Below are positions 26,311 to 50,307 of a DNA stretch of 64,000 nucleotides, piece by piece; the stretch's first letter is position 1, and the number at the start of each line of letters is the position of its first letter. The DNA comes from Mycoplasma sp. SG1. Lineage in GTDB: Bacteria; Bacillota_I; Bacilli_A; Mycoplasmatales; SG1. The translations under genes and the position numbers were made by a program. Where the stretch lies: contig NZ_CP076852.1 of NCBI RefSeq assembly GCF_023612375.1, positions 541,475 to 605,474 on the forward strand, in the 5' to 3' direction. The notes beneath the pieces are model-generated. The model was not told where the DNA came from, did no database searches, and saw only the letters and a list, made by a program, of their open reading frames with translations.

Positions 26311-27339
26311 ATGAAAGAATTTTCTAAATATAAATTAAAAATAATTAGTAAAGGTTGAAATTTTTGAAATATTCCAGCCAGCGGATATCCGTTCGGTGAA
26401 ACAACATTGTACCACGGATTAAATGGTAATGATAATGATATAAAACTTTTTACTGATATTATTAACCAATACCTTTCATATATAAGTCCTAAAAAAATTC
26501 AAATTAAAAATATCGATAAATCTATTTTTGCAGAAAGTAAATTAATTATATCAACATGAGAAAAAAGAAATATAAATGATTACTTAAAAGCAAGAATGAT
26601 AGGATGATATAAATTTACGACATTTCAACCATTAAAAGAATTTGTCGGGGTTTTAACAATTTTAAAAGGCAGTAAAAATTTTGGTTCAATCGTTGTTTGC
26701 TTTAATTTTAGACTTGATAAATTAGGTAATATTAAAGCGCTTGAAGAAATAGAATTTGATGAATATGGTTACTTTCATCATTTAGAAAGCGATTTTTTAG
26801 CCAAAAGTTTTTTAGGTATTGATAAAAATTATTGAAAAATTCATACTTTATATACAAACGAAATGATCAATTTAGATCAAAATGGTAGTCTTTTAAATTT
26901 AGCTAAAAGTAAATATTCAAAAAATCTTAAATTATTAAAATTAAAAAATAAAAATATTGACGATCTAAAATTGGAAATAAAATTTAAGAATTTAAGTAAT
27001 TTTAAAAATTTAGCAGGAATTATTTCACGAATCGATAATCTTGATTCTAAAATTGTTAAAACTCAAAATTATTTAATGAATATTATTCTAACCGCTGATA
27101 TTATTTTTTTAAATCCCAAAACTTGATATGGGGAAAATAAAGAAACTGCTAAAAAACATTATTCTAATAGTTCATGTTATGTTAAAAAGATTATTTATAA
27201 AAATATCAGAATCAATCATAATCATAAAAAGAACCATTTTAATGGCGATTTAATATATGAGTTAGATGATTTATACAATAAAAATCTTTTTGCAGGAGAA
27301 AAAATCGAAATATCTTGTTCAAATAAAATTAAAAATTAA
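26311..27339 (+). CDS. Hypothetical protein, unrecognised
   Basis: 342 aa, ATG 26311, TAA 27337-27339, with UGA codons at several positions (for example IISKGWNFWNIPASG). It has no signal peptide and no clear membrane segment, is basic and Lys/Asn/Ile-rich, and contains an N-terminal NIPASGYPFGETTLYHG segment that looks like a conserved loop. The middle is Lys-rich and helical. No family recognised. It is alone on the plus strand between divergent nfo and convergent polC; its stop codon overlaps the polC stop. A continuous 342-codon frame with UGA in plausible Trp places supports a real gene. Confidence 0.7.
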
Positions 27340-30300
27340 TCGTTAATAATATTTAAGTTCTTAAAAATTTTTAACTGTGTTTGGTTTAAAATTTTTGCTT
27401 CTTTAAATAATTGATGATTAAAGTCAGGATTACTTTTACGAAATGCGACAATTTTTTTACCAACTATATCACCAAGACCTTTAATTGATCTAAATGGTAA
27501 AATTAATGAATTTCTTTCATGATCAATAATAAATTTATAGGCATCTGATTTTTGGAGATTAACTTGTTCAAAACTAAAACCCCTTGCTATAAACTCTAAC
27601 GCACTTTCATAGGATGTAATTAAATCTTTTTCTTCGCTTGTTTGTCTTTTTTCATCAATTGCCTTTATTTCATTTAAGCGTTTTTTAATTAAAAAGGGGT
27701 CCTTTAAAATTAAAAATTCTGGTTCAAAATGAGTGCAACGAACTGAAAAATAAACTGAATAATATTCAAGAGGATAATAAATTTTAAATCATAAAATCCT
27801 TCACGCCATCATAACATAGGCTGTAGCGTGCGCTTTAGGGAAAAGATAAGTTATTTTTTTACATGATTCAATATATCAAGAAGGAATTTTTGCTTCTTTT
27901 AAAATATGTTCATAATCAGCATTTAAACCTTTCCCCTTTCGAATTGATTCCATGATTTCGAAAGCTAAATTACGATTTACTCCTGCATCGATTAAATTAA
28001 TCATGATATCATCTCTACAGGCAACAACATCTTTTAATTTATGATTTTTCTTTAAAATTAAATTTTTAGCATTATTAATTCAAACATTCGTTCCATGTGA
28101 TAGACCTGAGATTCGAACTAGATCAGAAAATTTAGTTGGCTTACCATCTAATAACATTTTTCTAACAAAATTTGTCCCAAATTCAGGTGCTCCGATAACA
28201 CCAATTGAATCATTTACCAAACCTTTAATTTTATAACCTAACGCTTCAGTTGATCTAAATAAAGAAAGAATCTTTTTATCATGAAAACTGATTTGATTTA
28301 ACAAAGCGCTTTTATTAACCAGTTTCGTCATAATTGAAATTACCTCAGGATCTAAATGCCCTAATAAATCTAATTTCAAAAGAATATCGTGAATAACATC
28401 AATATCAAAATGAGTAATTTTGAAATCAGCCTTTCTATCATCGCCTGGATAACAAACTGGTGTAAATTGATTAATGTTCATCCCTTTCGGAATAATAACA
28501 AATCCGCCTGGATGTTGTGAAGAAGTTTTTTTAATGCCAGTTAATTTTTTAATGATTAAACTTTTATTTAATTGATAAACTTTTTCTGGATTATTCTCAG
28601 CATATTCCATAAAATAACTATAAGCTAATTTATCTTGAATTTTAGAAATTGTTCCTGCTCTAAAAACTTGTTTAGGTGAAAAAAGATCGACAACAAATTG
28701 ATGGATTTTATTTTGATAACTACTTGCAAAGTTTAAATCAATATCAGGAACTTTATTTCCATCGATTCCTAAAAACGTTTCAAAGAAAATATTATGACCA
28801 TCGCCGACCATTTGGTTTGAACATTTAGGACATGGAATGATATCTAAATCAAAGCCTGAATCAATGTTTTTATCAACGAAATGATGATAATGACAAGATG
28901 GACAAACATAGTGAGCAGGAAGCGGATTAACCTCTGTGATGTTTAGTAAAAAACCAACAAAAGATGAGCCAATCGATCCTCTTGAACCAACTAAGTATTT
29001 ATCTTTCAAAGATTTATTTACGATTAAATTTGAAATTAAAAAAATATTTGCATAATCATTTCGAATAATAATTTTTAACTCTTCTTCAAGACGGAAAATA
29101 ATCAATTTATCAGGATTTTTACCATAGATCTTTTCAAGTTTACGATAACAGATCTTTTTAATTAAATTTGATGCATTTTCATCGATAACAACAGGATATA
29201 GTTTACTTTTAATTGGAATTAAGTCATTGCTTATCTGATCGCTTATTTTTTTTGGATTGATAAAAATAATTTCTTCAACTAGATCTTTATCATTTAAAAA
29301 GTCAAATTGATCAACAAGTTTTTTTGTTTCATATAAATGGGCTTGTGGAGATTTTTGATCATTATCGTATGATTTTAAATAATGGGTTCATGATTTATTT
29401 TTATAATTTTTAATTAATAAATCACGAACTGAATAATCTTCTTCATCAAGATAAAAACAATTTGATGTAACAATAACAGGTTTATTAATTTTTTTTGCTC
29501 ATTTGATGAAAGTTTTTATGATATCTTGAATTAAGGTGATTGATTTAAATTTATTATCGCCTATAAAATTAAGATATGCACGAGGTGGATTTAATTCAAG
29601 ATAATCATAGTTAAGAGCAAATTTTTTAAAATCTGAAAAATTATTTTGAATAACAGAATTAAAGACTGGACTTCTAAAATCGCATGAAGTTAAAATAAAA
29701 TGTTCTTTCATTTTTTCAATATTTTCAAAGAAAATTTTAGGACGCTTAAAACAATAATCGGTTGAAGCTAATGATAATAACTCGTAAAGTTTTTCAATTC
29801 CTGCTTGATTTTTAACATAAATATTAATCGGCCAACCTCTCGTTGTTTCATAATACTTTAATAAATTTACTGATCGATTATCATTATCATCAATTTTAAT
29901 TTGACAAATATCTTTAAAGTCATTCAATCCATTGTTTTCTAACAGTTCTAAAAGTTTTAAAAAACAAGCATATAAAACCTCTGCATCATAACCTGCCCTG
30001 TGCGCATTTGTAGTTGGTCCTGAATTATCGTTACTTTTTTCTAATGATGGACTATTTTCAAGATACTTAATCTTAAAATAACCAGCCAATGATTTTAAGC
30101 TAAATTTCTTTTTATCAACTAATATAAATCTTGCTAATGAATAAGTGTCTAAAACTAAATTTGATAAAACATCATCTAAATATTTTAGATAATATGATTG
30201 TAAAAAGCTATAGTCAAAAAGAGCGTTGTGGGCAACTAAAAGATAATCACCGATAAATTCTTTAATTTTAAGAATTCCAGATTTTGGATCATAACCATCT

Positions 30301-31871
30301 TTAAGCATTTCATTACTAATACCGGTTAAATTTTGAATAAAATCATTAATAGGTTGAGAAGGTTTTAAAAAAATTTCTAGTTTATCAACGATTTTACCAT
30401 CAACGATTTTTATTCCAGCAAACTCAATTATTTCATTAACAGAAGCATAAAAGCCTGTTGTTTCAAGATCAAAAACAATAAATTGTTTAATCTTTTTAAA
30501 ATTAAATTCTTCAATTTTTTGATTAATAAAAATATCAGGAACTTTTGGAATAACATTTAAAGATAAACCATAAATCAATTTAAATTGTGGTTTGTTTTTT
30601 AACTTTCAATAATAAGCAGATGGGAAATTTTGAACCGAATTATTATCAGTAATTGCTAATCCATCTAAATCATACTCAACCGCTCTTTCAAGATATTCTT
30701 CGACTTTATTAACTCCATCCATCATTGACATGTTGGTATGAACTGATAATTCTGTTCGCTTTAAATGATATTTGCTATATTTTTTTTTAACTTTAGGTTT
30801 TTTTTGCAAAATTTCAAAATCTTTTAAAAAACCGCATTCCTGTTTTAAATAAGAATCATGCCGGTAAGTTGAATCAACAACAATATAATCGTCATTTTGG
30901 AGTTTTTTAAACTTATTAAAAAAGGTCGAATGTGATGAGCTGGTTTTAAAAAATTTTTTAAAGCATAATCTTTCAGTGCCGTCATTTAAATAAAATTGAA
31001 ATATTGTTCAATCTTTGGGGGTGGTTTCTTGCAAATCAGTAACAGTCCCTGTTAAAAAAAATTGTTCATTTTCATGGACGTTTGATAATACATCAGAAAT
31101 TTTTTCAAATCTCAATGTATTAGAGTTTTTTGTCACTATTTTTGAACTTTGAAAAATTAAATTAGGATTTGATTGACTATTATCACTATCATTCTTGGTT
31201 TTCTTTTCATCAATAATTAACGGGTTTATAAACCTGTTTTGAAAAGAATATTTTTCACCGTTTGATAATATTTTTTTTTTAGGTTGAGCAAGTTTAACAT
31301 GATTGTATTTTTCTTCAATCATTTCCTTATTTGATCCTTGATTAACTTTTTCAGAAGATTTAGTTTCTGTTAATGTTGTGTTACTTTCTGATAGATCTTT
31401 ATTTTCAACAAATGGTTTTGAATTTAAAAAATATTCCCATCCATAATGACCAATTAAATATTGATCAAAATCAGAATTTAAGATTTTTTGAAAATTTATT
31501 AAATCATCTTGAGAGCTGAAATTAATCTGGAATAGATCTTTATCTTTTTTGTGTTTAAAATCTAAAAATTTAAATGATGAAAACTTAAGTTTTAAATCAG
31601 ATTTAAAATCTTTCGTAAATTGGGTGTTAATTTGATAATTACAAATAATATCAATATTTTGTAATTTTAGGTTTTCAATAAAATTTTTGATTGATTCGTA
31701 TGAAAAGTAATGAAAAACTTTAAAAACAATTTGGATTGTATTATCTTTTATTTCGATTGTTTCAAATTGAAACTTTTCTCAAATATTTATTTCTTCAGGT
31801 GATGGTTGATATTTAAAATAAAGAAAAAAATTCTTTATTCTTGGGTCTAACTTTTCTGTATCATCTAGCAT
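27336..31871 (-). CDS. polC: DNA polymerase III alpha subunit, PolC type
   Basis: 1511 aa, slightly longer than usual for PolC. Order: N-terminal domains I/II with an Asn/Ser/Lys-rich stretch, a PHP domain (HTNMSMMDGVNKVEEY, about residue 380) interrupted as usual by the 3'-5' exonuclease (FIVFDLETTGFYA, about 468), further exonuclease motifs (AHNALFDYSF, HRAGYDAEV), a zinc-binding CPSCHYHH / CPKC pair (about 985-1015), the polymerase palm PDIDLNFASSYQ (about 1043) and the C-terminal thumb and helix-hairpin-helix region. PolC is the replicative polymerase of low-GC Gram-positives and mollicutes. ATG 31871. Stop overlaps the stop of the convergent plus-strand gene. Confidence 0.97.
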
Positions 31872-31984: not shown

Positions 31985-34900
31985 TTAATTTAAAAGTGGT
32001 CTGTGTATTTTTTTTGGTTTGTTAAGGCGATTCAAAAATTTATTCATAGTTTTTGAAATAACCGATATTTTATTCTCATCAAGAATTAAAATTAATTTTG
32101 TATGAGCTGATACTATTCTTGTTTGTGCTGATAATAAACTTTCTTGTTGATCTAAAGAATATAAAAGAACTGTTTGGAAAATGCTGTCAATGAATTGAAA
32201 AGTATTTGATGAATAAATTAATTCTTTAGCTAATCTAAAATTATTCATTTTATGTTCATAAATTTTAATAACTCCAGCATTTTCATGTCTATCAATGTTA
32301 TATAAATATTTATTAAAGCTTTTGATTTCTATTTTTTTGAAAATTTTAGCAGCTTTGTCATAGATAGTAACAACACATTGCGTATTGTTTGGATCTTGAA
32401 CTATTTTCACTTTAAAACCATTTTCTAAGAAAAAGATAAAATCAAATGGCCCGATCGCTTTTCAAACAACCACTTTATGATTTGCTCCATCAACGTTAAT
32501 GAAGAAATGCTCATCGGTTCTTTCAAATTTTAAAACAAAACAAAGACAAAATTCAGTTCAAAAAAACTGTTGAATCAATGAATCTTTGTAATAAAGATTT
32601 ATCTTGCTGTTTTGATCAAGTTTGAATTTATACAATTTTTCATTATTAATCACTTCAGGGTTAATGTCATGGAAAAATCATTTAACTATTTCTTGATTAA
32701 CTTGGATTAATTTAGGGGGGTTTTTTGGAAAATAATATTCAAATACCCTGTTTAATAGTTTTTGGTTGATTTTATTAATTTGTTTTGATAAATGGTAAAC
32801 TTGCTCAATATTTTGTTTTGTTAGTTTTTCGCTGATATTAAAACGTGGAATTGATTCATTATCTAGTAAAAAAGCATCATGATTTATCGTATCAAATGGT
32901 CAAATAATCGATAAATCTTGTAGTTTTTGATCAATATCTAGTTTATGATAATACTGTTTAAAAATTTTACTTTGTTCTTGGTTAAAGTTTAAAATTTGTT
33001 TGTGTAATCTTTCAAAATCAAGTTCATTTAAAAAGTCAATCCCTTGCAGATTAGGAAGTTTAGCAGTTAAAGGAGAACCATCTAAATATGATTTAAATCC
33101 TAAATCATTAATCGTATCAATCAAGGTTTGAAATTTTTGATCAAGGAGTTTTTTTTGCTCATTATTTCAAATTTTGCATGTTTTAATATAATTTATAACT
33201 TCTTCTTTTAAATTTAAACTTGTTATATCTAATAATAACGGATTGACGATATTTAAACTACTATTAAAATCTGTTTTTATTAATCTTGGAATCTGAGTTT
33301 TTAATTGTTCTAATAGTTGGTTTTGCTCATTGTTATAATCCCTAATTTGAGATTTAAGGGTTAATAGTTCTTGTTTTAAAAATATATTTGCTAAATCAAC
33401 ATATGGTTGTGAATAATCTAATGGTAAATTATTATTTTTAGCAGTAAAACCAAGATTATTAACAGGAGGGATTGTGTTTTTTAAATTTTCTAAAAGATAT
33501 TTTTGTTCATCGTTTCACTTATTAACTTTATTTGCGATAAAATGAACTTCTTCAACTGAACGAATATGAGATAAGTCAAATAAAGGTTTTTTTTGCGTTA
33601 TGCCGTCTTCATAGGTAAAACCATAATCAAGCATCTCAGGAATAGATTTTAAACAATCCTGAAATATTTTTTTCTGTTCTTGGTTATAAAGGTTGATTTG
33701 CTGTCTTAAAACCAAAATTTCTTCATAAGTTAATTCGCGATTAGAACAAATATCTGAAATTTTTGGAAGCGGATTTTTTAAAGGTGAACCATCTAAATAT
33801 TTATCGATTGAATATCCTTTGATTTGTTTTAAACATTCATTAAAATGATCTTTAAAAATTGATACTTGTTCTTGGTTAAAGGTTAAAATATTAACTATTT
33901 GAGCATCGATTAAATGTTTTTGGATTTTATTTTTAGATTTAAAAATTTCTAATTTATCACGACTGACAGATAAGGCTGAACCATTAAATTTTGAATAGTA
34001 ACCTAAATCTTTAATTGGTGGTATTTTTGAGTAGAATTTATTTAATAATTCTCTTTGTAAATTATTTCAACGTTCAATATTAGATTGATGAATTTTTATT
34101 TTTTCAACATTATCTAGAACATTTGTTCCTAAAATCGTTGGTTTAGGGATATTAATACCATCTTCTTCTATAAAACCATAATCAAGGATTTCTTTTGTAT
34201 TTAAATTAACTAAGTTTAAAAGAAATTTTTGTTCATTATTAAAACTTTCAATCGATTCTTTTACATTTAATCATGAATGATAATCTATAATTTCGTCAGG
34301 TTTATAGTGTGGAACTTGATGTTTCACCGGTTCGTGCGTGACTGGATTTTCTTTGATATGATGATCTTCAATAGCAGGAATTTCTTTTAAATGCTCTTTT
34401 AAAATTAATTCTTGTTCATCATTAAAATTTTTGATTAAAGCGATGGCGTTAATAATATCTAATTTATTTTCAAATACTTCACTACTTAAAAGCGGGAAAT
34501 TATATTTTATTAATTCTCCTGTGTAATAATGTCTGAAACCTTTATCAATTATTTTCGGTATTTTTTTTAAAAGAATGTTTCTACATTTAGTTTGAAAATT
34601 ATTCCAGATTTTTACTTTACTACTTAATTTAATAAATTGATTATATTCGTTGAACTTAACGACAGGCTTACCAAACGGAGCCATATCTTCTTGAACTGTA
34701 AAACCAAAGTCAAGAACAGGATCTAATAATTTTAAATATTGCTCTCTAGCTTTTATTTGTGATTTATTAAATTCTTTAATTTTATCAATAGCTAATAAAA
34801 TATTTGTTTTATTTTTGAAAGTTTCTTCATCTAAATATTTATCAACTTTTTCTATAATTTCTCCAGATGGAAAATGTGGAATTCCATAATCTACAACCTT

Positions 34901-37900
34901 AGGAATTAATTTTTTATATTCTTTTAAAATTGATTTTTGCTCTTCGTTAAACTGAGTAATTGATCTTTCAATTTTTTCAAAATCATATAAAGTCTTAATA
35001 AAGGTAATATTTATCTCTGGTTTTTTATGTTGTAATGGTGCGCCGTTTGGATAAATAGTAAATTTTAAATCATTAATTGGAGATAGAAGTTTATAACAAT
35101 TTAAAATAATTTCTTCTTGTTCCTGGTTAAAGTTTAAAATTTTATCTTTTATTTCATCGCATTCAACTTTATCGTGGATGTTTTCTGGAACTATTCTTGG
35201 TTTTGGGTATTTTAGTTTATTACCTAAATGGTCTATTTTAAAACCTAAATCTTTAATTTCAGGCAATGTTTTTATAGCGTAATCTAAAATACTTTTTTGT
35301 TCTTCATTAAAATCGTGAATTTGTTTTTTGATATTTTGAAGATAATCGTCTTCTTGAATTTGTTTAAGATCAAGAATTGGTCTTTTATATTTTATTGGTT
35401 CACCAGAAAAATAAAATCTAAATCCTAAATCATATATTTTTAAAAGATTTTTATACTGATCTCTAATAACAGCAGCTTGTTGATTATTTCAAGCTTCAAT
35501 TTCATTGAATAATTTTAATAATTGTTTGCCGTCTTTATACTCTTTTAAATATCCTAATCTTTTATGAACATCTGGTTTATAAATTTTCTGAGATGTTATT
35601 GGATCATAAGCAGATATTCCATAATCAATCAAAGCAGGCATATTTGCTATGTAATAATCTCAAATCCGTTGTTGTTCTTTGTTAAAATTGATAATTTTAT
35701 CAAGGGTTTTTGAATAAGTATCTTTGTCTTTGATTTCAATTTCAGATAAATTCGGAGGAGGAGTTAAATTAAACCCATATTCATTTTTTCTAAATTTAAG
35801 ATCAATTATAGGTGTAAGCTCTTTTAATTTTTGTAATAGAATTTGTTCTTGGTCGGTATTAAATCTTCTTATCCCTTCGATAATTTCAGAAATCTGGTCA
35901 AATGTTATTGTTTCTCCCTTATCGTCTTTGAATGTAGTAGGAAACGGAACAGAAGCGCCATCTCCTTCATCAAATCCTAAATACTTAACTTTAGGAACTT
36001 GAAGCATAAACTCATTCATTAAATCAACTTGTTCTTTATTAAAGTTAATGATTTTTGTTTTTAAGGTTTCAAAAGATAAATTACCTTTATAAAAATGATG
36101 AAGGTTATACTTCAACGGAGACCCATCTAATTTTGAAACAAAACCTAAATAATGTAATTCAGGTAAATCTTTATTTATTTTTGAAACATTTAAAATCGCT
36201 TCTTTTTGAAATTGAATTAAAACTTTTAAATATTTTGCAAGAGCATATATATCATTGATGATATTTTCCTGTGATAGTCTTGTAAGTGAGGTTTGCGTTT
36301 CAACATAAAATATCTCTGTTCCAACTTTATGTCTAACTAATTTATCAAAAATTTCTTTTAAGTTTGATTTAAATTTAAAGTTTTCTGGATTTGTTAAGAA
36401 ATCAGATTTTGAGTTAAATAAATCAAAAACATGATGAATAAATTCTTCTAATACTTTATCAAAAATAACTTGATTTTTCTTTAATAAACCTATTTCTTTA
36501 ATATCATCAAAATAAAATAATTTGTTGACAAGATCCATTCCAACAATTGTAAAATCGATTAAAAAAATTGATTTTATTAATTTGATTTCATTTTCATCAA
36601 ATAATTGTTTTAAAAAATTAATGAAATAAACGTGAAGTTGAATGTATAAAAATTTCTTGGTATTAAAAAACTGTAAAAAACTTTTTGCTTTAAAGTGATC
36701 TAATAGATTTTTTGCAATAATTTTATGTTTTCTAATTTTCGTTACTAAAAATTTATTAATAATATTTTTAGCAAATTCATTTAATTGAAAGAAATCATAA
36801 AAAATAATGTTTTTTTCAAATTCTGCAGAATTATCAATGACTGTTAAAAATAATGTTCAATCTTCTATTTTAAACTCTTTGCCTTGATAATCAATAATTT
36901 CTTTAATGGTTTGATAAACAGATTTAGCGATGTTTATCATTATTCCGATTTTTAAGAAATAACAATTGCTAGAAGTAAGTTGATATAAAGCATCAGGTTT
37001 TTCTGGACAAAAATTAGAAATATTTGAATAAATTAAATAAAAATAGTTAACCATCGGATCAATGGCGTATACTTGATTTAATTTATTTTTAGGTTGAAGA
37101 TATTGATGTGGGAAAACAAAATGATCAACTACATGATTAATAGTTGGAGATTTAATATATAAAAATGATTCAGCATTTTGAAATGTATAACTAACATCAT
37201 TTAATCATTTATTAACGTTCGCTCCAAAGAATGCTTTTTGAAAATCCTCGATAATTAATGGTAATTTTTCAAATATTATTTTTGAAGATTGAGCTTTAAA
37301 ATCAAGGTTATGTTTTGTAAAACTATTTAACAAAATCTCACTAATTTTTTCATACACTTCTAAATAATAGTAATCAGAAAATAAACTTGAATTAATTAAA
37401 GATTGATAAATTTTACGTTTTTTTAAATATGTATTATTTTGTAAAAAATCAAAATATTCAGGTTTTAAAAAAATACCATTTTTTAAAGTTGCATACTTGG
37501 ATATAAATATCGAAGATAAAATTTTTAAAAAGTTTTTTTCTTTTAAAGTCCTAAAACCATAGGTTTTTTTCAAGACAACGTTAGTTATCTTGCTATAAAT
37601 ATCAAATGGAACAAGAATAGATTGTTCTTCGATTGGTTTATGTTGAAATTCATTAAGCTTATCTAAAAATGATTTATTAGAAATTGCAGCTTTATTTTTA
37701 AACTGCATCGCTAACTCATCGTTTTGTCTGATGATTGATTTACTTAAATCAATTATCATTTCCTTCGTTTTGTGAGAAAAATCTAATGGAATAAAAAAGT
37801 TATCATTTTGATATTTTAATTCATAGTTGATTCTTCCGACTATTGTTTTTGTCGCAAAACAGTTAACAGCTTGAAATGTTAATAAACTAATAAGATAAAT

Positions 37901-38356
37901 AAAATTAAATATTTTTTTTTCGCTTCGATGAGTTTTTTGTAAAGTCAATCATTCACGATAATTGGCAAAATTATTTATTAAAGGGTTTTGAATAAAATAA
38001 ATTATTTTTTTAAGATTTGTTTTATTAATAAAGCTAACTGTATGATTATCTGTAAGATTTGATGAAATAATCTGAAAAATAAATTTTTTAAAAATTTTAT
38101 CTACTTCTGAGATAACTAATAAATTTTTAATTTGATAATCCGTTTTTATGAAATGATTTATTTCTTCTTCAAGAGTTGTTAAATTGATTGAAAATTTTTT
38201 ATTTTCTAATAAGAAATTTTCAGGATCTTTAACTTTTTTAATCGCTGTAAAAAATATTGCTTTTAAACTTAAATAAAAGTATTTGATATTTTCTTTTATA
38301 TGTTGATTAATATCGTTGTTTATATTAATTTTTTGGTAATTTATTTTATTCTTCAT
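31985..38356 (-). CDS. Giant protein with about 18 tandem 60-residue repeats, unknown function
   Basis: One frame of 2123 codons under table 4, from ATG 38356 to TAA 31985. Three parts: an N-terminal region of about 730 residues, helix-rich, Phe/Ile/Lys-rich, without signal peptide or clear transmembrane helix; a repeat region (about 731-1800); and a C-terminal region of about 320 residues, partly beta-like. Each repeat begins with a P-x-I-x-D-L-G-F-like turn, then D-G-x-P-L and a Pro, and ends in F/W/Y-N-x-E-Q, with 18 such end motifs spaced 60 residues on average. The lack of export signals suggests a cytoplasmic or scaffold role. Size and repeats recall mollicute cytoskeletal or gliding-machine proteins, but I see no homology to them; that is only analogy. 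polC follows after 113 nt. Confidence 0.85.
32957..36166 (-). repeat. Protein-level tandem repeat region of the giant gene
   Basis: Encodes residues about 731-1800 of the giant protein. The repeat-end motifs seen are FNKEQ, FNTDQ, FNKEQ, WNNQQ, FNEEQ, FNQEQ, FNEEQ, FNKSQ, WNNFQ, FNDEQ, FNNEQ, WNNLQ, FNQEQ, YNQEQ, WNDEQ, YNNEQ, WNNEQ and FNQEQ in order, from residue 772 to 1791. A more divergent FQKEA at about 716 may be an extra first unit. The repeats are diverged at DNA level, so they are old and selected, not a recent expansion. Confidence 0.85.
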
Positions 38357-38608: not shown

Positions 38609-39895
38609 TTAATTATAGTCACTTGACAGTGCTTTTAAAAAATCTTTTCTTGATTCTGCTCCGTTAGCGATAGACTGTTCAAAAAAATACACGAAATGAT
38701 TATTAACTGCTCTGTTTCAAAAGAACGAATCTGCATGAGAAGAACCTGGAAGAACTGTAAAGTTAAAATATGGTATTGGTCTTTTGATTTTGCCTATGGT
38801 TTTAACTTTTGTTCAAAATAGTAAACTAATTCCGTTGTAGTAGGAAAAAAGCAATGGTTTGAAATTATCACTATATGGGACAAATGTATCTGCTGTCCCT
38901 TGAACAAAATACATCGGAACAATACTTCGTGCAATGTTATGCGCTGGATTTATTGAATAAGGGTTTCATATGTTCGCTATTATTGTCGAACTTATAGCTC
39001 CAAAATATACTAATCATAATGGGATATCGTAGGTATCTCATAAAACATGTTCAACTTCAGCCATAAGAGAAGCATATCCGCTGTCTTGAATAATATAATC
39101 TAGTTTAGAACCTTCTGCAACATAATCTCTATTGCCGTATAGATCTGAAAACATCATAACCGTAGCAGCACCCATGCTTGCTCCATAAATACCAATTGTA
39201 GAAGCATCTGCTCTTTGACTTATTTTTTCATATACTGCCTGTAATCCATACGCTTCAAAAAGTCCAAACGCAACCCCTCCGGAACCAGTTGTTCCATGAA
39301 AACCAAAGTTATCAATTTCATGCGACATAACTGAATAGTTATCATAAACAACAATATTTATCCCTAATTCTAATAATTTTAAACCGATAATTAAAGAATA
39401 AGTTCAATCAGAAAGAATGCCGTGAACTAAAATAACTCAATGATTAGCATATTCAGGATGTTCTGGCGAAGGTTGAAATGGCGATTTTATTGTATAGCCT
39501 GAAATAACATAAGAAGGATAGGTACCTGGTCCTTTAACATTTAAATAAAAATGATTAATTAATGGCGAAGGTATACTTTTATATTTTTTATTAAGTAGCA
39601 ACCCATCAATATTTAAAGCCTTTAAAGTCTCAATATCTAAATGGCCATTTTCTGGTTGAGGTGGTGATGAAGAAATGTTTTTTTTAATAGGAGGTGGTGG
39701 TGGTATATTGGGTGAAAATAAATAATTAACATTTTCTAAATTACCTTTACAGGCATCGATTTGACATGAAGCAAATTGTTGCGGTAGATAAACGCCGATA
39801 ATCGGTCCAACCGCAATGTTAGCGAATATATATATTCCTGCTATAAAAGCTAAAATTAAACAGATTACTTTACTTTTTTTTGACTTTAACTTCAT
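38609..39895 (-). CDS. Membrane-anchored alpha/beta hydrolase
   Basis: 428 aa, ATG 39895. One N-terminal hydrophobic segment (about residues 8-35), then a Pro-rich stretch with five consecutive prolines (about 64-70), then an alpha/beta-hydrolase domain: VILVHGILSDW (oxyanion strand), nucleophile elbow GIYGASMGAATV (Ser), an acid in FVQGTADTFVPY and a His in LPGSSHAD. This is the order Ser-Asp-His of the fold. Substrate unknown; related mollicute proteins are annotated as esterase/lipase or serine aminopeptidase. The anchor suggests it acts outside the membrane, perhaps on host lipids or esters. Frame contains many UGA codons. Confidence 0.85.
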
Positions 39896-39951
39896 GAAAA
39901 TAATAAAAATGATTGTTCTAAAAATTAGAAATTAAAAAAGAAAGATAAATA

Positions 39952-40425
39952 TTAAGTTATTTTAACATAAGTTAAAATTTTATCTTTACTTAATTCTAAA
40001 ACCATATATGATTTACCAACTAAAGATCGCGGATATGCTAAAGATCCAGGGGAAATAATTCTAACCCCATCAACCTCTTGATCAAACAATTGATGAATAT
40101 GACCGTGTAATAAAACATTACAGTTATATTGTTTTGCAAACTTAGCATACGCTTCTTGGTGATTAGATCTTTTATAAGTTATGATATCACCATGTACAAC
40201 AATAATATTTCAATTATAAATTTTAAAAATTTCAAATTCAGGGAATTTAAGATCTATGTCATTATTACCACGAACACAATAAGTAAAATCTTTTTTAATC
40301 GCTTCATAACTCATCATAGAATCGCCACAATGAACTTTAACACTACAATGAGGTTCCTCTTGGAGAACTTTTTTAATCATCGATCTATCACCGTGATTAT
40401 CTGAAACTAATAATATTCTTATCAT
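39952..40425 (-). CDS. YfcE/MJ0936-family metallophosphodiesterase
   Basis: 157 aa. Small calcineurin-like phosphoesterase with the five metal motifs in order: VSDNHGD (D-x-H), VHCGDSM (G-D), VRGNNDID (G-N-H/N-D), VVHGD and LHGHIH. The family hydrolyses phosphodiesters in vitro; the physiological substrate is uncertain. Full length for the family. ATG 40425. One UGA Trp in IYNWNIIVVHG. Confidence 0.9.
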
Positions 40426-40516
40426 AAAATTAAAATATTTAAGGAAAACTTATATTTTTCTAATTATATAAAATATTTGAAATTTAAAATTAAAAAAATC
40501 TATTTAAAATCCTTTT

Positions 40517-42130
40517 TTAAATAATTGAAGATAATTTTCTGAAATACGTAATGGCGTAATTATGAGCTCGATCTTGTAATAAAGTAATGAAATTTTTTAA
40601 TTTTGGTTCAGATGATAATAAAATCGCCTCATCATCTGAATCGATTAATAATTTATAAGATCGATGCTTAGCATCTTTGGAAACAGAAATAATTTTTGAA
40701 GATAAATATCCTTGTAAAATTTTTTTAGCAGCGTTTAATTGTTGCTTGCCCCCATCAATAATGATAAGATCAGGAATAACTAAACTGCTTCCAGATGATA
40801 TATATTTCTTTTTTAAAGTTTCTTGAATAGCAAGCGGATCATTAGATGAAGTGATTATTTCGCTAAGATTATATTTCCTGAAATTACTTCAAAAGAAATG
40901 ATTATTTTTAAAACTAATAACTGCTCCAACATAATTAAGACCACAAAAATGCGATGTATCGATAAAGTCAATATGATTTAAATGGGTCAGTTGGAGAATA
41001 TTTTTTAAATAGTTTAAGGGATGTTGATACTTTTCTGCATCTTTTACAACTTTTTCAAAACTAGTTTTAAAGTAAATTTTGTTATTTTTGTTAACTAAAT
41101 CCAATAGTTTTCTAAATTTACCTTTTAAAGGGGCTAAAATTTTAATTTTTTTAGCATGATTTGATTCATCGTTATGAAAAAACCAAGCGTCTTTAAATTC
41201 TTTTTCACAGATAAAAATATCAGGTAAAATATTAATACTATATAAATTGGATAGTTGTAATTGTAGCTCGCTGAATCAATCAACTTTTATTTGAAAAATT
41301 TCTTCTGTTTTTGAAAAGAAAGAACCTTGATAAAAGAAATAAATGGTTCAAGCTAAATAATTATCTTTAATTTCTCAACTTAAAACGTGATAGTTTTTTT
41401 GGCTTTTAATTTCAATTAATTGTTGACTTAAAAGTGATTTTATTTTTGTTTTTAAATCTAAATATTCTTGTGCTTTTTCAAAATCTAAATTATCGCTATG
41501 TTCTTGAATTAATTGATCTATTTTTTTAATTAAAGATGTATCTTTTTTTCTAAAAAAATTGGTTAGTTGGTCTTTTAAAGGAATGTAATCTTTTGCTTGA
41601 ATATTTTTGTTAATACATGGCGCTCAACATTGTTTTAAATCAAAAAAAATACATGATTTTTTAGGCAATTTAACACATTTACGAAACGGAAGTTCAGCGT
41701 TTAAAAAATTAATAATTTTTCTTGCTCAAAATCCATCTGGAAACGGACCAAAAAAAATACCATTTTTTTGTTTTATAGTTGGATTACGAAGATAAATTAA
41801 ACGCGGATATTCTTCATTCGTTAAATGAATATATGGATATGTTTTATCATCTTTTCATAAAACATTGTATAACGGTTGGTGTTTTTTAATTAATCTTTGT
41901 TCAAGAATTAAAGCTTCTATTTCTGAATTTGTTACATAAAAAATAACTTTAACTATCTCAGAATAAAAATTATGTAATAAGCGGTGGGGGGTTGTAAAAT
42001 GTTGCTTAACCCTTTTTTGAATGTTTTTTGCTTTACCAATGTAGATAATCTGGTTGTTGTCGTTTAAAAAACAATAACAACCAGATAATGCTGGTAAAGG
42101 TTTGATTAATTGCGCTTGAAGAGTTGTTAT
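40517..42130 (-). CDS. uvrC: UvrC excinuclease subunit, predicted ATA start, no C-terminal HhH
   Basis: 537 aa. It makes both incisions in nucleotide excision repair. N-terminal GIY-YIG nuclease ([24 protein letters not shown]), a Cys-containing region (KQCWAPC), a UVR segment ([12 protein letters not shown]) and a C-terminal RNase H-like nuclease ([48 protein letters not shown]). It stops right after that, so the usual tandem helix-hairpin-helix DNA-binding end is missing. Between an upstream in-frame stop and the conserved [14 protein letters not shown] there is no ATG, GTG or TTG. The likely start is ATA 42130, overlapping the ftsK stop in ATAA, with AAAGG 7 nt before. Confidence 0.92.
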
Positions 42131-45093
42131 CTTAGAACCTTTCTTGGTCTTGACCCATCTTGGGGACCAATAACTTTATCTTTTTCTAATTGATCGATAA
42201 TACTTGCAGCGCGGTTAAAGCCGATTCGATATTTTCTTTGTAAAAAAGAAGAAGAAATTTGTGTTAATTCAGTTTCAACTCATGCTTTTATTTCTGGATA
42301 TAAACTATCATTAAAGTTTTGACTTGATGTATGACTATGATCTGAAAGTGAATGAGTTTCATCGTTTAAAAATTGAGGTGATCGTTGATTAATAATAAAA
42401 TGAGTAATTTCATTAATTTCACCATCAGTTATGAAAGGACCTTGAATTCTAACTGGATGAGGAATAGATGGAGATTGATACAACATATCACCATTCCCTA
42501 ATAAGTTTTCAGCACCACCTTGATCTAAAATTATTTTAGAATCGATTGCTGAACCGACTTGAAAACTAATTCTTGCTACAATATTTGCTTTAATAACTCC
42601 AGTGATAATATTAACAGATGGTCTTTGGGTTGATAAAATTAAATGAATTCCAGCAGCACGACCAAGTTGCGCAATTCTTAAAATATATGTTTCAAAAACT
42701 TTTCCAGAAGTTAACATTAAATCAGCTAACTCATCAATAATAACAACTATATAAGAAAGTTTATGTTTTGAATTAGAACAACTACGGTTATAATCAGCAA
42801 TATTTTTAAAACCAACTTGGGCTAGGAAATGATATCTATCATCCATGATCTTAATAAGTCTGATGAATGCTGATTTAGCTTTATCGGTTGTTTTAATAAC
42901 AGGAACAAGAAGATGAGGAATATTTTGATAAGCGGTCATTTCGACTTTTTTAGGATCAATCAAAATTAATCTCAAATCATTTGGCGAATTTGTAAGCAAT
43001 AAAGCGATTAAAATGGTATTAATACAAACTGATTTACCAGTCCCCGTCGCTCCTGCTATTAAAAGATGTGGTAGTTTTTTGATATTTAAAACTTGACATT
43101 TACCGTTAACATTTCTTCCAATTGGCAATGTTAAGGTTGTTTCGTTGTTGATTAATATTTGTTCTTGAATTAAAGTTTTTAAAGATATTAATTCATTTCA
43201 TGGTGATTCAGTCTCAATTCCAACCATCGACATTCCAGGAATCGGAGCTTGAACCCTTAAACTTTTGACAGCAAGTCCTAATTTTAAATTATTTTGAATT
43301 TGTAAAACACGACTAAGATTAACATTTTCAGGTAAACGTAAACGGTATTGAATAAGTGAAGAAGAAATATGGGCTTCGATACTTAAAACTTCCATGTTAA
43401 AAGCTTTAAAAGTATTAACAATAACATCTTTTTTTTGTTTTACAAAAGTTTCTTTTTCAAGTTTTGGAGATGGACTTTTAAAAACTTTTAAAAAATCAAG
43501 TCTTGGGAATTTATAATTTGATAAATCATAAGCAAAATAAACTATATCTGGATTATCTTCAATCGCTTTTTCAATTGAAAGTTTTTTTGAAGATTTAGAA
43601 TTAGAGACAACAGGCGCATGACTTTCATCTTCTTCTTGATCAACATTTAATTCTTTAATACTAAAACTTTCATTATTTAATCGTTCATTCTTTTCTTGAT
43701 TTTCCATTACTTCCTCGGTTGACATTCTTTTAAATGGCGTAAGAATAATGTCATCACCAAAAATCGCAGATCTAATTTTTGCTTTTTTAGCTTTTATTTT
43801 ATTAGGTAATGAAAAGATTTTTTTCCGATCAACTTCATCGGTTTCTAATGATTGGAAGAAATTGATTTTTTCAGGTTTAGGCATTTGAGTATCAATCGTA
43901 TTTGTTACTATTGTTTTAGTTTCATCGATTAATTTTTTATTATGTTCTTTTACTTCTTCAGGAAGTTCAAAAAGACCTATTTCTTTTTCATCAATTAAAT
44001 CAGCGCCAGCAAATTTATTTTCTAATTTACTTCCTGGTTGAGAATTAACTTCATTTTCAATAACTTTATCGCCATCTTCTTCAATAAATACATTTTTATT
44101 GATCGTTGGAGCAGATAAACCTTGATCGGTTATAATATCCTCTTTCGCTGGTTTACGATCATAATGTGCTTTTCTTCAAATTTCCTCTGTTATCTTGCTT
44201 TCACTTTGTAAAGAATTAGGAGTAGCTTCAGGAAAAGGATGAGTAGAAATTACCATCTCATCAGAATTATTATTTTTATTTCTTAAAAATTGTTTTGAAT
44301 CATTAAAATTTGGTTCAGGCGATGGTTGAGAAGCAAATGTTGGCTGATTTTCTTCAATTTTAGATTCTAACTTTGAATATTTTTTTTGAAGAAGAATTTG
44401 TTGTTTTTGTTTCTTTAGAAATGCTTCTTTTTCTTTATGGACTAATTCAAATTGATATTTTTTAATTGCTTGTTTATAAATAGACCTTTTCCGATATCAA
44501 TAAATTAAAAATGTAAAGCATCAATAATATAAATAATAAGAATGATTAGTTAATAAAACACTAAAAACTATTAAAAAGAAAAGAATATTTACGACAGATG
44601 CAAGAACGACTGACAAACCATGAATCGGAATTAGTAAGAAAAAAGCAACATAAACGGTTTGCAAAACACCACTGGTTATAGTTTTGTTATTCTCTCAATC
44701 CTTGATAAATTGATTTAAAGCTTGTGAAGAAGTGTGTGAACCCATTAATTTAGCCATTGCAATAAAAATGGTAATAGAAATTGTCAGCATCGCTAAAGAG
44801 ACAATTTTACGATTAATGATTGGATGGGCGCTACGCCGGAATATTTCTAGGATTAAAAATCAAAATGAAAAGAAATAAAATATATATCTTCCGATAGAAC
44901 CAAATAAAAGATTATAAGTATAGTGGTCTACTTTTAAAGATTTTAAAAAAATTGAGACAAAACTAAACGTAACAAAGACCAATAAAAAAAGGGCTAAAAC
45001 TTGTCATTTTATCGACTTAAAAAATGATTTATGGCGTTTTTTAAATTGATTGGATCTATTATTGATTTTATTTAATCGTCTAACTGCTTTCAA
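42127..45093 (-). CDS. ftsK: FtsK/SpoIIIE DNA translocase
   Basis: 988 aa. N-terminal membrane domain with about four helices (to residue 200), a long Glu/Lys/Ser/Asn linker (to about 400), then the motor: the alpha/beta RecA-like parts with LIAGATGTGKSVCINTIL (Walker A), VVIIDELADLM (Walker B), LSTQRPSVNIITGVIKANI and a C-terminal gamma winged-helix (RIGFNRAASIIDQLEKDKVI). It pumps chromosomal DNA through the division septum. The start is taken as TTG 45093, because an in-frame TAA lies at 45118-45120 and no ATG occurs before the first helix. The stop overlaps the uvrC start by 3 nt. Confidence 0.93.
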
Positions 45094-45190
45094 GATAACA
45101 TTTTTTGTACTCTCGCTTTATTAGGAATATCTACAAAATATTCCAATATTTATTATCTTAATTATAAGTTTTAAATAATAAAAATAAAAC

Positions 45191-46888
45191 CTAAATAATA
45201 AAAAAATTAACTTCTATTATTGGCGATTTTTTAAAGTTCGTGAAAATAAATTTTTGGATTAATTTGGTTAGTTGATTCCGACTTTCTAATAAAATTTTTA
45301 ATTTATCAGTTTCTGGTATGTTATCTTTGATTTGAATTAAAGCGCCGTTAACATTTGTCTTAATAAGTTCTTTAATTTTTTCTTTAGATTGAGGTAAAAT
45401 ATCTAAATCTATTCCCTTAGTTTGAAAATCAATATTCGTAACGATTTGATTTTTTTCAAAATTAATCCCCAAACTTGTTGCTAATAGACCATCATTTAAT
45501 AATGTAATTCTGTCAGTTAAAATATTATCTGTAATCTCTTTTTGTTGAAATGATTGTAAAAATAATGAATCAACATCAATTTGTTTTTCTAAAACAACTG
45601 CTGAATTTTTATCAAAAACAATACAGTCGCCGTTTTCTACTAACAGGCCTTTAAAAGGATAATTTTGACTGTTAATCCTTTTTACTGTTTCAACTGCTAA
45701 ATTATAATGAAGCGAAACAGGAACAAAGTAGTCTGGATTTATATATTTTAAAACTGTTAAAATATCATAGCGTGATGGATAAACTGTTGAACATGTTTTT
45801 GGAAGAAAATAAAATGTTATGTCCTGTTTAATAAATTCATTGTAAATTTCTACCCCTAATAATTCAAAACCAACTAGTGGTCTTGTTAATGAAACAAAAA
45901 CATCGCTTTTTGTTATTTGTAATATTTTTGGTGAATATAACAATAATAAAATGTCTTTTAAAATTTGGGGATTTTTTCCGCTTAATAAAATGATGCTATT
46001 TTCATCTAGTTCATTGTGGTTTGATATTATTTTTAAATGTTCAAAAGAAAAAAAGTTGTTTTTTTCTAAAAATTTTAAAAATTGGAATAATTTGTTATTA
46101 GCGAAAAATAAACTTCTTTTTTTAGTTATCGCCAAATGAATAATTTCTTTGATTACTAAAAAATCATAGTTATAAACTGAAATAAAAATTTTTTGATTTA
46201 TATGATTGTTAAAGATGTTTGCTATAAATTCTCTAATCGAAGAATTAAAACAAGCGAATTGTTTATTTACATAACCACTAGATGATGAAATTACCAGTGA
46301 TTGTTTTTCAGTAATCGGTTTTGAATTCTGGTAAAGAAATTCTAAATTGGTCAACATTTTTAAAGGTTTTAAAGATGTTGCTTCAAAATTTAAAAAATAA
46401 TCATTTAAATAAAATATTTTTCAATTATCAAAATCAATTAAATAATTATAAGAATCAAACATATTTGTATCTAAATTGAATGGTGTTATCTTAAAATAAT
46501 TAAAATTGATGGTTTTATTGCTTTCTATTTGATGAAAATTAATATTTTTAAAAATTTGATTATTTACATCATGTCCTTTTAGTCAATCGATTGTTAATTT
46601 TGATGCATATATTGGTGTTTTAAATTTAGAAAAAAAATAACGGTACCCACCAATATTATTTTCAGACATATTAGTAAAAAAGATCGCTTTGATATGATTG
46701 GCTTTTTTTAATAAATATTTAATATTGGAAATTTTAATATTTATGCCTAAATTATTGTTTGGGCTTGGATAATTACCATAGTTAAAAATTACTATTTCGT
46801 TGTTATATTCAATGAAAAAGCAGTTTTTTGCTATTTCTGTAAAACCACCCAATGCATAAATTTTTAGTTTGTTTGAATTTGTTATCAT
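45191..46888 (-). CDS. RNase J-like protein without metal-binding motif (probably catalytically inactive)
   Basis: 565 aa with the full RNase J layout: N-terminal beta-lactamase half (KIYALGGFTEIAKNCFFIEY, as G-G-x-x-E-I-G-K-N in active enzymes), beta-CASP middle and a C-terminal domain. But the catalytic T-H-G-H-x-D-H-I-G is T-N-M-S-E-N-N-I-G at residues 72-80, and later ligands (H-x-S-G-H-A, P-V-H-G-E) read P-K-T-C-S-T and P-V-S-L-H-Y. So no zinc site can form. RNase J processes and degrades RNA; many Firmicutes have an active J1 and a weak J2 partner, and this looks like an extreme J2-type subunit. It lies 72 nt downstream of pnp, with which RNase J interacts in Bacillus. Confidence 0.85.
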
Positions 46889-46960
46889 TTTAAGTTGGTG
46901 ATGTTTTAAATTAAAATTTTATCATTTTCGTTTATTTAAATTTAATTCAACTTTTAAAAA

Positions 46961-48838
46961 TTAAAGATTAAATAATGAATCTGCAGCTTCAGTTAAAATC
47001 GCTGAATTAAAGTGAAAAAGAAAAATGATTGTTTTTTGGTTTTGTTTAAAGTGAAAAAATTTTAAGTATTTAAATTTACTATTTGTTGTTAGATTTTTAA
47101 AAGATAAAGAAAATTTGTTGATAAAGTTATTGCTATCGTTAAAAACAAGTTTTTTATATTTAATTAAAGTATCAGGTAATGGATTCGGTTTCTTAATTGT
47201 TAATTTAATTTTATCAATTAATTTTAAATTTGTCTTATATCCGCAAACTAAAATTTTTTTAATTAAATTGAGATCAATTCCTTCTTTTGTCTTAACATCA
47301 ACCTGAACTCCCCTTATCCCCTGTTCACTTGCAGCAATTTTAAAATCCATCAATCCAATTTCATCTTCAAAAGAATTAATATCTAACAGTAAAACTTCTT
47401 TTTTTTGTTTAGAGATTAAACCAATCGATATTCCTGTTACAATTTCTTTTAAAGGAACGCCAGCATCTAATAATGCAATAGAAGTAGCAGAAATAGAAGC
47501 CTGTGATGTACTTCCATCGCTTGCTAGAACATCATTTACAGATCTAATAACATATGGAAATTCCAAAGTTGAAGGTAAAACAGATCTAATAACATTTTCA
47601 ACAAACTGACCATGCCCAATTTCACGTCTTGAAGAAAACCCAGAAAAATCTTTAATTTGATTAGTTGAGAAACTATTAAAATGATAGGAATTAAAATAAT
47701 ATTTTTTTGTAACTTGATCTATTGAATTTAATTGTTTAAAACTATCAAGCGATGATAAAGTAACACAACTTAAGACTTGTGTTAATCCCCTTTCAAATAA
47801 TCCAGAACCATGGATTGAAGGAAAAATACGTTTTTCTACATCTATCTTTCTTAATTCTAAAAATTTTCTTCGATCTATTCTTGAAGATGTTTCAATGATT
47901 TGATTAATAATTTTTTCTTTTTGCTGTTGAAAAAATAATTTTTTAAATCTATATATGTCTAAATCATCTAAATCTTTTTTTAATGTTTCTTTAAAATTTA
48001 AAAGTCCGTTTTCTAGTTCTTGATTTAAAGATTTTTTTAGATTATATGAAGTAAGGGTTTTTGAAAAATCAAAACTCTTAAATGGATAGTTTGAAATAAA
48101 TTTATTTACTTCATCATCAGCAGTTAATAGTTGTGGAGAAAATAATTCTTTTTTTAACGATTTAAAAATTTTTATTTGAAATTTTATTAACTGGTTAATG
48201 TAAGTTTTAGCGACTTCAACGGCCTTATTTAGCTCATCTGCTGTCAAAGGTGAACCATGATAGTCAATCATTGTGATATTAACTTTATTTTTTGTTTTAA
48301 CACCACTGATTAAAACTCATTGTTTTTTGTTGTTGATGTAATTTTCTGATAATTCTAATTTTCATTCTTTTTTAGAATAAACAAGAACAATCGCTCCAGT
48401 GGGTTTAAAATATTTATCCCCTAAAGTTAAATAAAGGTTTAGAGATGTCGCAAAAATTGCTGTTCAATAAAAGTTTAGTTTATTATTAAATGAAAATAAA
48501 TCAATTGTTGATTGGATCTGATTTAAAATGTTTGATTCAATTAATGGTCTAATGGAACGATCAATTAAACGCGAAGTTATGACAGAAAAAAGTGAATTTT
48601 TATCTTCATCGCGATTATAATTGGTTGGAATTTTATTAATAGAAAAAAAATTTTCTGATATAGAAACTTTGTAATTTAAAAAGCCAGAAACCTTGTGCTG
48701 ATTGGTTTGAAAAACTGATGAAACCAAAAAGATGGTGTTTTTAAAAGATAAAGAAAAACTGTTGTTTACTAATTTAGCGTATTTGTCAAAAACTAATTTT
48801 AAAGATGAATCAGAAAAATTTAATGAAATATTTTTCAT
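46961..48838 (-). CDS. pnp: Polynucleotide phosphorylase with divergent or missing KH/S1 end
   Basis: 625 aa against about 700 in the family. Two RNase PH-like domains: the first degenerate (NRDEDKNSLFSVITSRLIDR is its recognisable part, usual R-E-G-R-x-x-x-x-x-x-L-x-x-R-L-I-D-R), the second well kept: GHGQFVENVIRSVLP, ASDGSTSQASISATSIAL, VLLLDINSFEDEIGLMDF with the catalytic acids. The last 80 residues replace the KH and S1 RNA-binding domains with a short divergent stretch. PNPase degrades RNA 3' to 5' using phosphate. Downstream of rpsO, as in most bacteria. ATG 48838. UGA codons at several sites. Confidence 0.9.
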
Positions 48839-48859
48839 TAGAAACTTAAACTGATAATC

Positions 48860-49144
48860 CTAAATGTTATCTTTCAGATTTAGTTTTTTAATTAACTCAT
48901 AATATGTTGGTCGGTCATTTTTTTTAAGATAAATTAAAAAACGACGTCTTTGACCAATTTTCTTCATTAATTGGTATTTAATTAAATTATCTTTGGGATA
49001 TAACTTTAAATGCTCGGTTATATTTTTGATATTATTTGTTAAAAGTGCGATTTGAACAGAAACAGAACCTGGATTTTTTAAAGATCCAAATTCACTTATA
49101 ACATCAGTTTTGGTTTTTTGAGTGTAATAATAATATTTTTGCAA
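48860..49144 (-). CDS. rpsO: 30S ribosomal protein S15
   Basis: 94 aa. The core EFGSLKNPGSVSVQIALLT and the C-terminal KIGQRRRFLIYLKKNDRPTY are typical of S15, which binds 16S rRNA helices in the platform. The N-terminus has an unusual run of four Tyr before the conserved helix. Start TTG 49144; no ATG lies upstream in frame near the conserved part. Precedes pnp by 21 nt, the conserved rpsO-pnp pair. Confidence 0.95.
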   Translation of the reverse strand: MQKYYYYTQKTKTDVISEFGSLKNPGSVSVQIALLTNNIKNITEHLKLYPKDNLIKYQLMKKIGQRRRFLIYLKKNDRPTYYELIKKLNLKDNI

Positions 49145-49233
49145 GATAGTGATTTTTGATTAGTTATAATATTTGTTTTTTGAATTTAAGGTTGTTTTTA
49201 AAAAGAAAACGTTCTTATAAATTATATATATTT

Positions 49234-50307
49234 TTAAAAATTTACATATAAATTACCAAGTAATTTCTTCTCTATTTCCTCATTTGTTATATTTTGAAGC
49301 ATTTTCAATCTTTTTTCTGTCTTGGAGATGAAAAGTTTTGCTTTTTTTATGTCATCTTTAATTACATCTAATAATTCAAGTTGAGATGAACAAATTTGAT
49401 CGTGCCGTAAAAATTTTAAAAAATAAACGGTAAGTTGTTTGATATTTAACAAAGTATTTTCAAAATTATTTTCTGAAATACTATAATTTGTTCTTGCTGG
49501 TCATTTAAAAAGATGAACTTCAATTCTTGAGTTTTTAAGGTTTAGCATAGTTGGCGATTTACCAATGTAAATTAAAGATCAAAAAAATTTATCAAGATCT
49601 TTTAGATAAACAATTCCAGTATATATACCATCGATAGGGATTAATTTATTTTTTGGGATTAACAGATTAAGGGTTGAAATAAACATTTTTGTTCCAATTT
49701 GAGTACCAGGAACAACCTTACCTAATAAAAAATATGGATGTCCTAAAAAAAGGTTAATATCTTCAATTGGATAATTATTTTGAAAGTGATTTTTAACTAA
49801 TGAGGTTGAAATATTTCTTTTTTGATCAAAAGTTAAAAGTTCAACTTCTTTAACTTTAAAATGTTCTTTTAATTCTGTAATTGAACCGGTTTTATCTTTC
49901 CCATAAGTTGTATCTTTGGTGCAAATAAAAGTATCAACTAAAAAATATTTTTTAATAAAATTAATAAATTGTTGCGATGTTGTTTTATAAAGTCATTTAT
50001 CAACTTTAATAATAATTAAGTAATTCAATCCAGAATGTTCAAAATAAAGAATTTTTTCATTAATCGTTGTAAAATTTAAATCGTTTTTGTCTGGGTTGGG
50101 AGATTTTGGAAACGTAAAAACTAAACTAAATAATTTATGGCGAATTGCGTATTGTCATAAATTGTTTAAAAAATAACAATGTCCTTTATGTAAACCATCA
50201 AAAGTTCCGATTGTACAAACAACTTTTAAAGGGAGCGGATTAGTTTCTAGTTCTTTTATTTCTTCATTTAGATAAATACTTTTACAAGATATTTCAATAA
50301 TTTTCAT
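49234..50307 (-). CDS. ribF: Bifunctional riboflavin kinase / FAD synthetase
   Basis: 357 aa. N-terminal FAD synthetase (nucleotidyltransferase) with GTFDGLHKGHCYFL, CTKDTTYGKDKTGS and RNISTSLVKNHF; C-terminal kinase domain with FLGHPYFLLGKVVPG, IYTGIVYL and SPTMLNLKNSRIEVHLF. It converts riboflavin to FMN and FAD. A C-terminal Lys-rich helical tail of about 40-50 residues (after ICSSQLELLDVIKDD) is longer than usual. ATG 50307, 13 nt after rbfA. In many bacteria ribF lies in this infB-rbfA-rpsO neighbourhood; truB, usually beside it, is absent here. Confidence 0.92.

What the first reader, a model, noticed from the sequence alone, without database searches (positions are those of the whole stretch)
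31985..38356. A 2123-residue cytoplasmic-looking protein with 18 repeats of 60 residues
The gene is a single UGA-read frame 6.4 kb long, about a tenth of this window. Its centre has 18 end motifs of the form F/W/Y-N-x-E-Q with a mean spacing of 60 residues (772 to 1791), each preceded by a D-L-G-F turn and D-G-x-P-L. The repeats are strongly diverged in DNA but keep the pattern, so selection has held the architecture for long. I see no signal peptide, no membrane helix and no enzyme motif. The alternation of F-N-x-E-Q and W-N-n-x-Q suggests two repeat subtypes. Inference: a long rod or scaffold, possibly part of a mollicute cytoskeleton or motility apparatus, or a binding surface for nucleic acid or partner proteins; nothing proves any of these.
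Basis: partly seen in the sequence, partly recalled or inferred. Interest (0 to 1): 0.8.

Follow-up and report, generated by a model that had tools for sequence, protein, structure and literature searches.

The report
Mollicute giant protein with frozen repeats
A very small wall-less bacterium devotes 1% of its genome to one giant protein built from 18 copies of an undescribed 60-residue helical repeat, and one distant relative carries the same 18 copies in the same order, which suggests that the length and order of this internal rod or scaffold matter to the cell.

Summary
The repeat protein is real. A 2123-codon frame (UGA = Trp, no TAA/TAG) lies on the MINUS strand, 38356 to 31985. It holds 18 [FWY]NxxQ motifs 55-65 residues apart (about 1.3 expected by chance) plus a degenerate repeat in front. 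Pfam, NCBIfam, PHROGs, PADLOC and PDB sequence searches find no family. AlphaFold2 on four repeats is confident (pLDDT 86): one 27-residue helix plus an extended loop per repeat; Foldseek finds no known fold. Among 320 genomes of the order, plus samples of class and phylum, only one other genome (G002, another family) has the gene, at the same end of the same nusA-infB-ribF-rnj-ftsK block. Its 18 motifs match the window's one for one: same-rank repeats resemble each other more than any shifted pairing (5 of 200,000 permutations), repeat lengths correlate, and Trp versions sit at ranks 4, 12 and 17 in both. So the array was complete before two deep lineages split and has kept its number and order. 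Best reading: a cytoplasmic solenoid or rod scaffold of defined length; function is inferred, not shown.

The parts
31985..38356 (-). Whole gene, 2123 codons, code 4 (13 TGA = Trp)
36266..38356 (-). N-terminal region, residues 1-697; basic (pI 9.2), rich in F/I/K/N; no relative found, absent from the G002 ortholog
36086..36262 (-). Degenerate first repeat, residues 699-757; matches the first repeat of the G002 protein
32906..36097 (-). Array of 18 repeats of 55-65 residues, residues 754-1817; each one helix (about 27 aa) through FNxEQ plus an extended loop
31988..32905 (-). C-terminal domain, residues 1818-2123; weakly similar to the 263-aa ORF that follows the array in G002 (local z 3.1, 17 of 2000 shuffles)
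42127..53983 (-). Upstream block shared with G002: nusA, infB, rbfA-position ORF, ribF, (pnp), rnj, ftsK
   Evidence: rnj named from its sequence
38609..42120 (-). uvrC, a YfcE-like phosphoesterase and an alpha/beta-hydrolase-like membrane protein, standing between ftsK and the repeat gene here but not in G002
27336..31871 (-). polC, next gene downstream here; not beside the ortholog in G002

Best explanation
A single-copy, chromosomal, probably cytoplasmic giant protein made of a new family of about 60-residue helix-plus-loop repeats. Shown: 18 repeats plus a degenerate first one, no known family, a confident predicted repeat structure, and one ortholog in another deep lineage with the same repeat number, order and chromosomal position. 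Inferred: the repeats stack into one continuous solenoid or rod; the near-invariant Asn and Gln in mid-helix make a side-chain ladder between neighbouring repeats; the diverged outer faces hold different partners at different ranks. The array would thus work as an internal scaffold or spacer of fixed length with unlike end domains. That it organises the cell interior or pole in these MreB-less cells is a guess.
For: 18 motifs against 1.26 expected; AlphaFold2 pLDDT 85.8 with the same helix-loop in each of four repeats; Asn invariant and Gln at least 90% conserved in 23 repeats of two species; same-rank repeats more alike than others (offset 0 best, 2 of 100,000 permutations; 5 of 200,000 after centring); length correlation r 0.67, p 0.003; Trp at ranks 4, 12, 17 in both; same gene block in G002; no signal peptide, membrane helix, enzyme or nucleic-acid-binding family; no MreB in either genome, the profile hits being DnaK and an FtsA-like protein beside ftsZ.
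Against: No localisation, expression or partner data. The stacking of repeats could not be inspected (coordinates not available; pTM only 0.66). Only two genomes have the gene, so it is not a general mollicute structure. The basic N-terminal 697 residues are missing from G002. The G002 frame is broken by one base in repeat 17, so that copy may be decaying or mis-assembled.
Confidence: 0.5

Rival explanations
1. A surface or secreted host-interaction protein, exported by a non-classical route, with the repeats as a stalk or as host-protein mimics.
For: Giant repeat proteins of bacteria are often surface proteins (general knowledge; Gli349 in PMC7052211); lineage-restricted; in G002 the next gene encodes a protein with an apparent signal peptide and C-terminal membrane helix (sequence).
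Against: No signal peptide, lipobox or membrane helix in either protein (and sequences); array frozen in number and order, unlike typical variable surface stalks; the G002 membrane neighbour has no homolog in the window's genome or in 55 other relatives.
Confidence: 0.2
2. A nucleic-acid-binding or chromosome-organising protein, the repeats tracking DNA or RNA in the way TAL or Pumilio repeats do.
For: Neighbours are ftsK and polC; the N-terminal region is basic (pI 9.2).
Against: The array is about neutral (net -4 over 1120 residues, pI 6.7); no nucleic-acid-binding family matched; the basic N-terminal region is absent from G002 and the G002 C-terminal piece is acidic (pI 5.0).
Confidence: 0.12
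3. Cargo of a phage or other mobile element that inserted near ftsK.
For: Patchy distribution: 2 of 320 genomes in the order.
Against: Same chromosomal block in both lineages; no PHROG family; no relative in viral contigs, a pattern-limited scan; codon usage is the genome's own.
Confidence: 0.05

Closest known systems
Uncharacterised 1117-aa protein of genome G002 (P0002, same order, other family) with the frame-broken 263-aa piece that follows
   Same: Same repeat, 27% identity over 1100 residues in one collinear alignment (E 2e-77), same 18 ranks, same gene block
   Different: Lacks the 640-residue N-terminal region; frame break in repeat 17; only weak similarity in the C-terminal domain
Gli349, gliding leg protein of Mycoplasma mobile (PMC7052211)
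   Same: Giant mollicute protein, also described as having 18 repeats
   Different: Repeats of about 100 residues, N-terminal membrane segment, surface location, gli123-gli349-gli521-gli42 neighbours; none of these here
Alpha-solenoid scaffold proteins (HEAT, ARM, TPR, ankyrin class)
   Same: Long arrays of degenerate helical repeats in a cytoplasmic-looking protein; works-like resemblance only
   Different: No match to any such family; one long helix per 60 residues instead of helical hairpins of 33-40 residues; no Foldseek match
Staphylococcal protein A / Z domain
   Same: Best PDB profile hit (3s1k, E 0.094); similar length and an FNKE...P stretch
   Different: Not significant; only 27 positions aligned; three-helix surface domain

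Membership tests
Ortholog group with P0002 (G002) | Significant full-length similarity of the array | tested here: met
   E 2e-77 over 1100 residues
Ortholog group with P0002 (G002) | Same repeat number and order | tested here: met
   18 motifs each, counting through the G002 frame break; rank test
Ortholog group with P0002 (G002) | Same chromosomal context | tested here: met
   nusA-infB-ribF-rnj-ftsK block upstream in both; three extra genes between in the window
Gli349-type gliding leg protein | Repeats of about 100 residues | tested here: not met
   Mean spacing 59.9
Gli349-type gliding leg protein | N-terminal membrane segment, surface protein | tested here: not met
   No signal or membrane segment; best hydropathy 1.65 at residue 149
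Known alpha-solenoid repeat families | Match to the family profile | tested here: not met
   No Pfam or NCBIfam hit to P0001 below E 0.05; sub-cut-off E 0.0029 hit for P0002 over 31 residues to an unrelated family
Known alpha-solenoid repeat families | Structural match | tested here: not met
   Foldseek PDB best E 1.2
Protein A / Z domain | Significant profile match over the domain | tested here: not met
   E 0.094, 27 positions
Cytoskeletal scaffold (functional class) | Cytoplasmic location and filament or scaffold formation | not testable with these tools
   Only the lack of a signal or membrane segment could be seen

The most novel reading that the evidence does not exclude
The repeats form a new solenoid class (one helix plus one extended return segment per turn), and the fixed 18-repeat array is an intracellular length-setting ruler or pole scaffold in two deep mollicute lineages that lack MreB.
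Probability: 0.15. Interest if true: 0.8.

Novelty: new variant of a known kind. Interest (0 to 1): 0.5.

Why it matters
A repeat family with no sequence or fold relative found here has kept its copy number and order across two families of a genome-reduced order, although repeat arrays commonly gain and lose units. That points to a length- or rank-dependent job inside some of the smallest cells known. If it is a scaffold, it would be a new structural element of wall-less bacteria, whose internal organisation is largely unexplained.

Tried and rejected
Weak order-wide hits to the repeat profile (E 5e-6 to 0.01) in 35 other genomes: those inspected are single chance matches in a helicase-like protein, a permease fusion, a TsaB-like protein or non-coding frames. 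The N-terminal-region hit in G002 (E 5e-4) lies out of frame within another gene, era. No repeat gene behind ftsK in eight other genomes, as far as the fetched stretches reach. IF-2 and FtsK trees neither support nor reject G000+G002 as sisters (p-AU 0.47 and 0.39); a first IF-2 tree used wrong-strand rows and is discarded. AlphaFold2 of the C-terminal domain failed (pLDDT 41), and its Foldseek hits to OspA are disregarded. A six-repeat alignment (A3) slid out of register and was not used. A programmed frameshift in G002 was considered because the break sits on A_AAA_AAG, but no structure lies downstream (z +1.5). MreB as partner: profile hits are DnaK and FtsA-like.

Full report
OBSERVATION. 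The window lies at 541475-605474 of a single-contig 622,752-base genome (G000) that stands alone in its family among the genomes held. The frame is on the minus strand, 38356 down to 31985: 2123 residues, 13 TGA read as Trp, no TAA or TAG. Codon-position GC (0.36/0.20/0.15) and codon usage (r 0.97 with polC) are those of an ordinary gene of this genome. Eighteen [FWY]NxxQ motifs occur from residue 772 to 1791, mean spacing 59.9; shuffles give 1.26, maximum 5 in 200. A 60-position repeat profile recovers all 18 with 27-64 bits each and a degenerate copy before them at 699-757. The repeats are diverged: about 28% residue identity, 49% base identity against 32% expected from composition, no tandem DNA repeat. 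Two details of the finding are overstated: exact D-G-x-P-L is in 2 of 18 repeats, and the aromatic position reads FFFWFFFFWFFWFYWYWF, not an alternation.

ANATOMY. Residues 1-697 are a basic (pI 9.2), F/I/K/N-rich region without relatives. Residues 754-1817 hold the 18 repeats (net charge -4 and pI 6.7 for 698-1817). Residues 1818-2123 are a C-terminal domain; a two-sequence AlphaFold2 run gave only a hint of a beta-rich core (pLDDT 41 overall). No signal peptide or lipobox is seen, and the best hydrophobic stretch reaches 1.65 on the Kyte-Doolittle scale, so a cytoplasmic protein is most likely (inference).

REPEAT STRUCTURE. Across 23 repeats from two species the consensus is roughly IxxxNxEQxxxLxxxxKxxPxIxDLGFxxxxxG...P; the Asn is invariant and the Gln at least 90% conserved. 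AlphaFold2 on four consecutive repeats, with six non-overlapping four-repeat rows as alignment, gives pLDDT 85.8 and pTM 0.66: in each repeat one helix of about 27 residues through the FNxEQ motif, then an extended stretch with short strand contacts. Foldseek finds nothing in the PDB (best E 1.2) or among viral proteins (best E 1.0). A polar Asn/Gln pair fixed in mid-helix suggests a ladder of contacts between stacked repeats; this is inference, as coordinates could not be inspected. Stacked side by side, the array would be about 20 nm long; laid end to end, up to about 80 nm (rough arithmetic).

RELATIVES. Pfam, NCBIfam, PHROGs, PADLOC and PDB sequence searches give no significant match to the window's protein; for the G002 protein one Pfam hit below the curated cut-off (E 0.0029, 31 residues) is taken as chance. 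Of 320 genomes of the order, only G000 and G002 (647,830 bases, another family) have real arrays; the other hits inspected are single chance matches. Samples of 395 genomes of the class and 392 of the phylum add none. The gene is single copy in G000. In G002 the frame of 1117 aa is broken by one base at an A run inside repeat 17; the repeats and a C-terminal piece (263 aa from its first start) go on in the next frame. I cannot tell an assembly error from a real split; a programmed -1 slip is conceivable but lacks a downstream structure.

FROZEN ARRAY. Counting through the break, G002 also has a degenerate first repeat and 18 motif repeats. Same-rank pairs (16 tested) score 52.5 on average against 37.3 for other pairs, and offset 0 is the best of all offsets. 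After removing row and column means the excess is z 4.1, reached by 5 of 200,000 permutations. Repeat lengths correlate by rank (r 0.67, p 0.003). Trp stands at ranks 4, 12 and 17 in both, and a shorter DGI loop at rank 11 in both. So the array had its present number and order in the common ancestor. Both genes stand downstream of the block nusA-infB-ribF-rnj-ftsK; in the window uvrC, a phosphoesterase and a hydrolase-like gene lie between ftsK and the repeat gene. Eight other genomes examined have no such gene behind ftsK. IF-2 and FtsK trees leave both lineages on long, unplaced branches and do not reject a sister relation; one origin, with or without losses elsewhere, fits, and independent transfer is unlikely given the synteny.

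MECHANISM. Committed reading (0.5): an internal scaffold or spacer of defined length, with unlike ends, whose rank-specific repeat surfaces hold partners at set places. Shown: anatomy, intact frame in the window, predicted repeat fold, ortholog, conserved number and order. Inferred: stacking, cytoplasmic location, partner binding, structural role. Neither genome has MreB (profile hits are DnaK and an FtsA-like protein beside ftsZ), so there is room for an unusual structural element, but no direct evidence for one. Rivals in order: surface stalk, nucleic-acid organiser, mobile-element cargo.

NOVELTY. A new repeat family within the known kind of solenoid or rod scaffold proteins. The coincidence with Gli349 (18 repeats, PMC7052211) does not extend to repeat length, membrane anchor or gene neighbours.

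Noticed in passing
L004:13808-13820 (G002 ortholog): The repeat gene's frame breaks at CTAAAAAAGTAA, a perfect A_AAA_AAG slippery heptamer directly before the zero-frame stop; the rest of the protein continues in the -1 frame. Homopolymer error, decay or programmed slip cannot be told apart; no stem-loop downstream.
   Followed up: partly
window 13739-15510 (-): The fatty-acid kinase FakA/YloV homolog is split: DAK2 part in 15043-15510, rest in another frame at 13739-14710; a frame break or assembly error.
   Followed up: partly
window 58563-62228 (-): A 1221-aa helicase-like protein matches the C-terminal halves of anti-phage families ProA and Hhe well below their cut-offs: a reduced relative of DUF4011-type helicases.
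   Followed up: no
window 38609-39895 (-): Alpha/beta-hydrolase-like protein with an N-terminal hydrophobic segment and a GASMGA nucleophile elbow; no Pfam or NCBIfam match, but homologs (E 1e-6 to 2e-14) in 15 of 56 relatives.
   Followed up: partly
window 40517-42120 (-): The uvrC frame extends upstream of its listed TTG start, with a GIY-YIG-like part, up to the end of ftsK; the real start codon is unclear.
   Followed up: partly
window 26311-27339 (+), 18437-19372 (+): Plus-strand ORFs of 342 and 311 aa without any matched family, in a window that is otherwise almost wholly minus-strand.
   Followed up: no
L004:14928-16850 (G002): Next to the G002 repeat gene lies a 640-aa protein with apparent signal peptide and C-terminal membrane helix, found in no other of 57 genomes searched.
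   Followed up: yes
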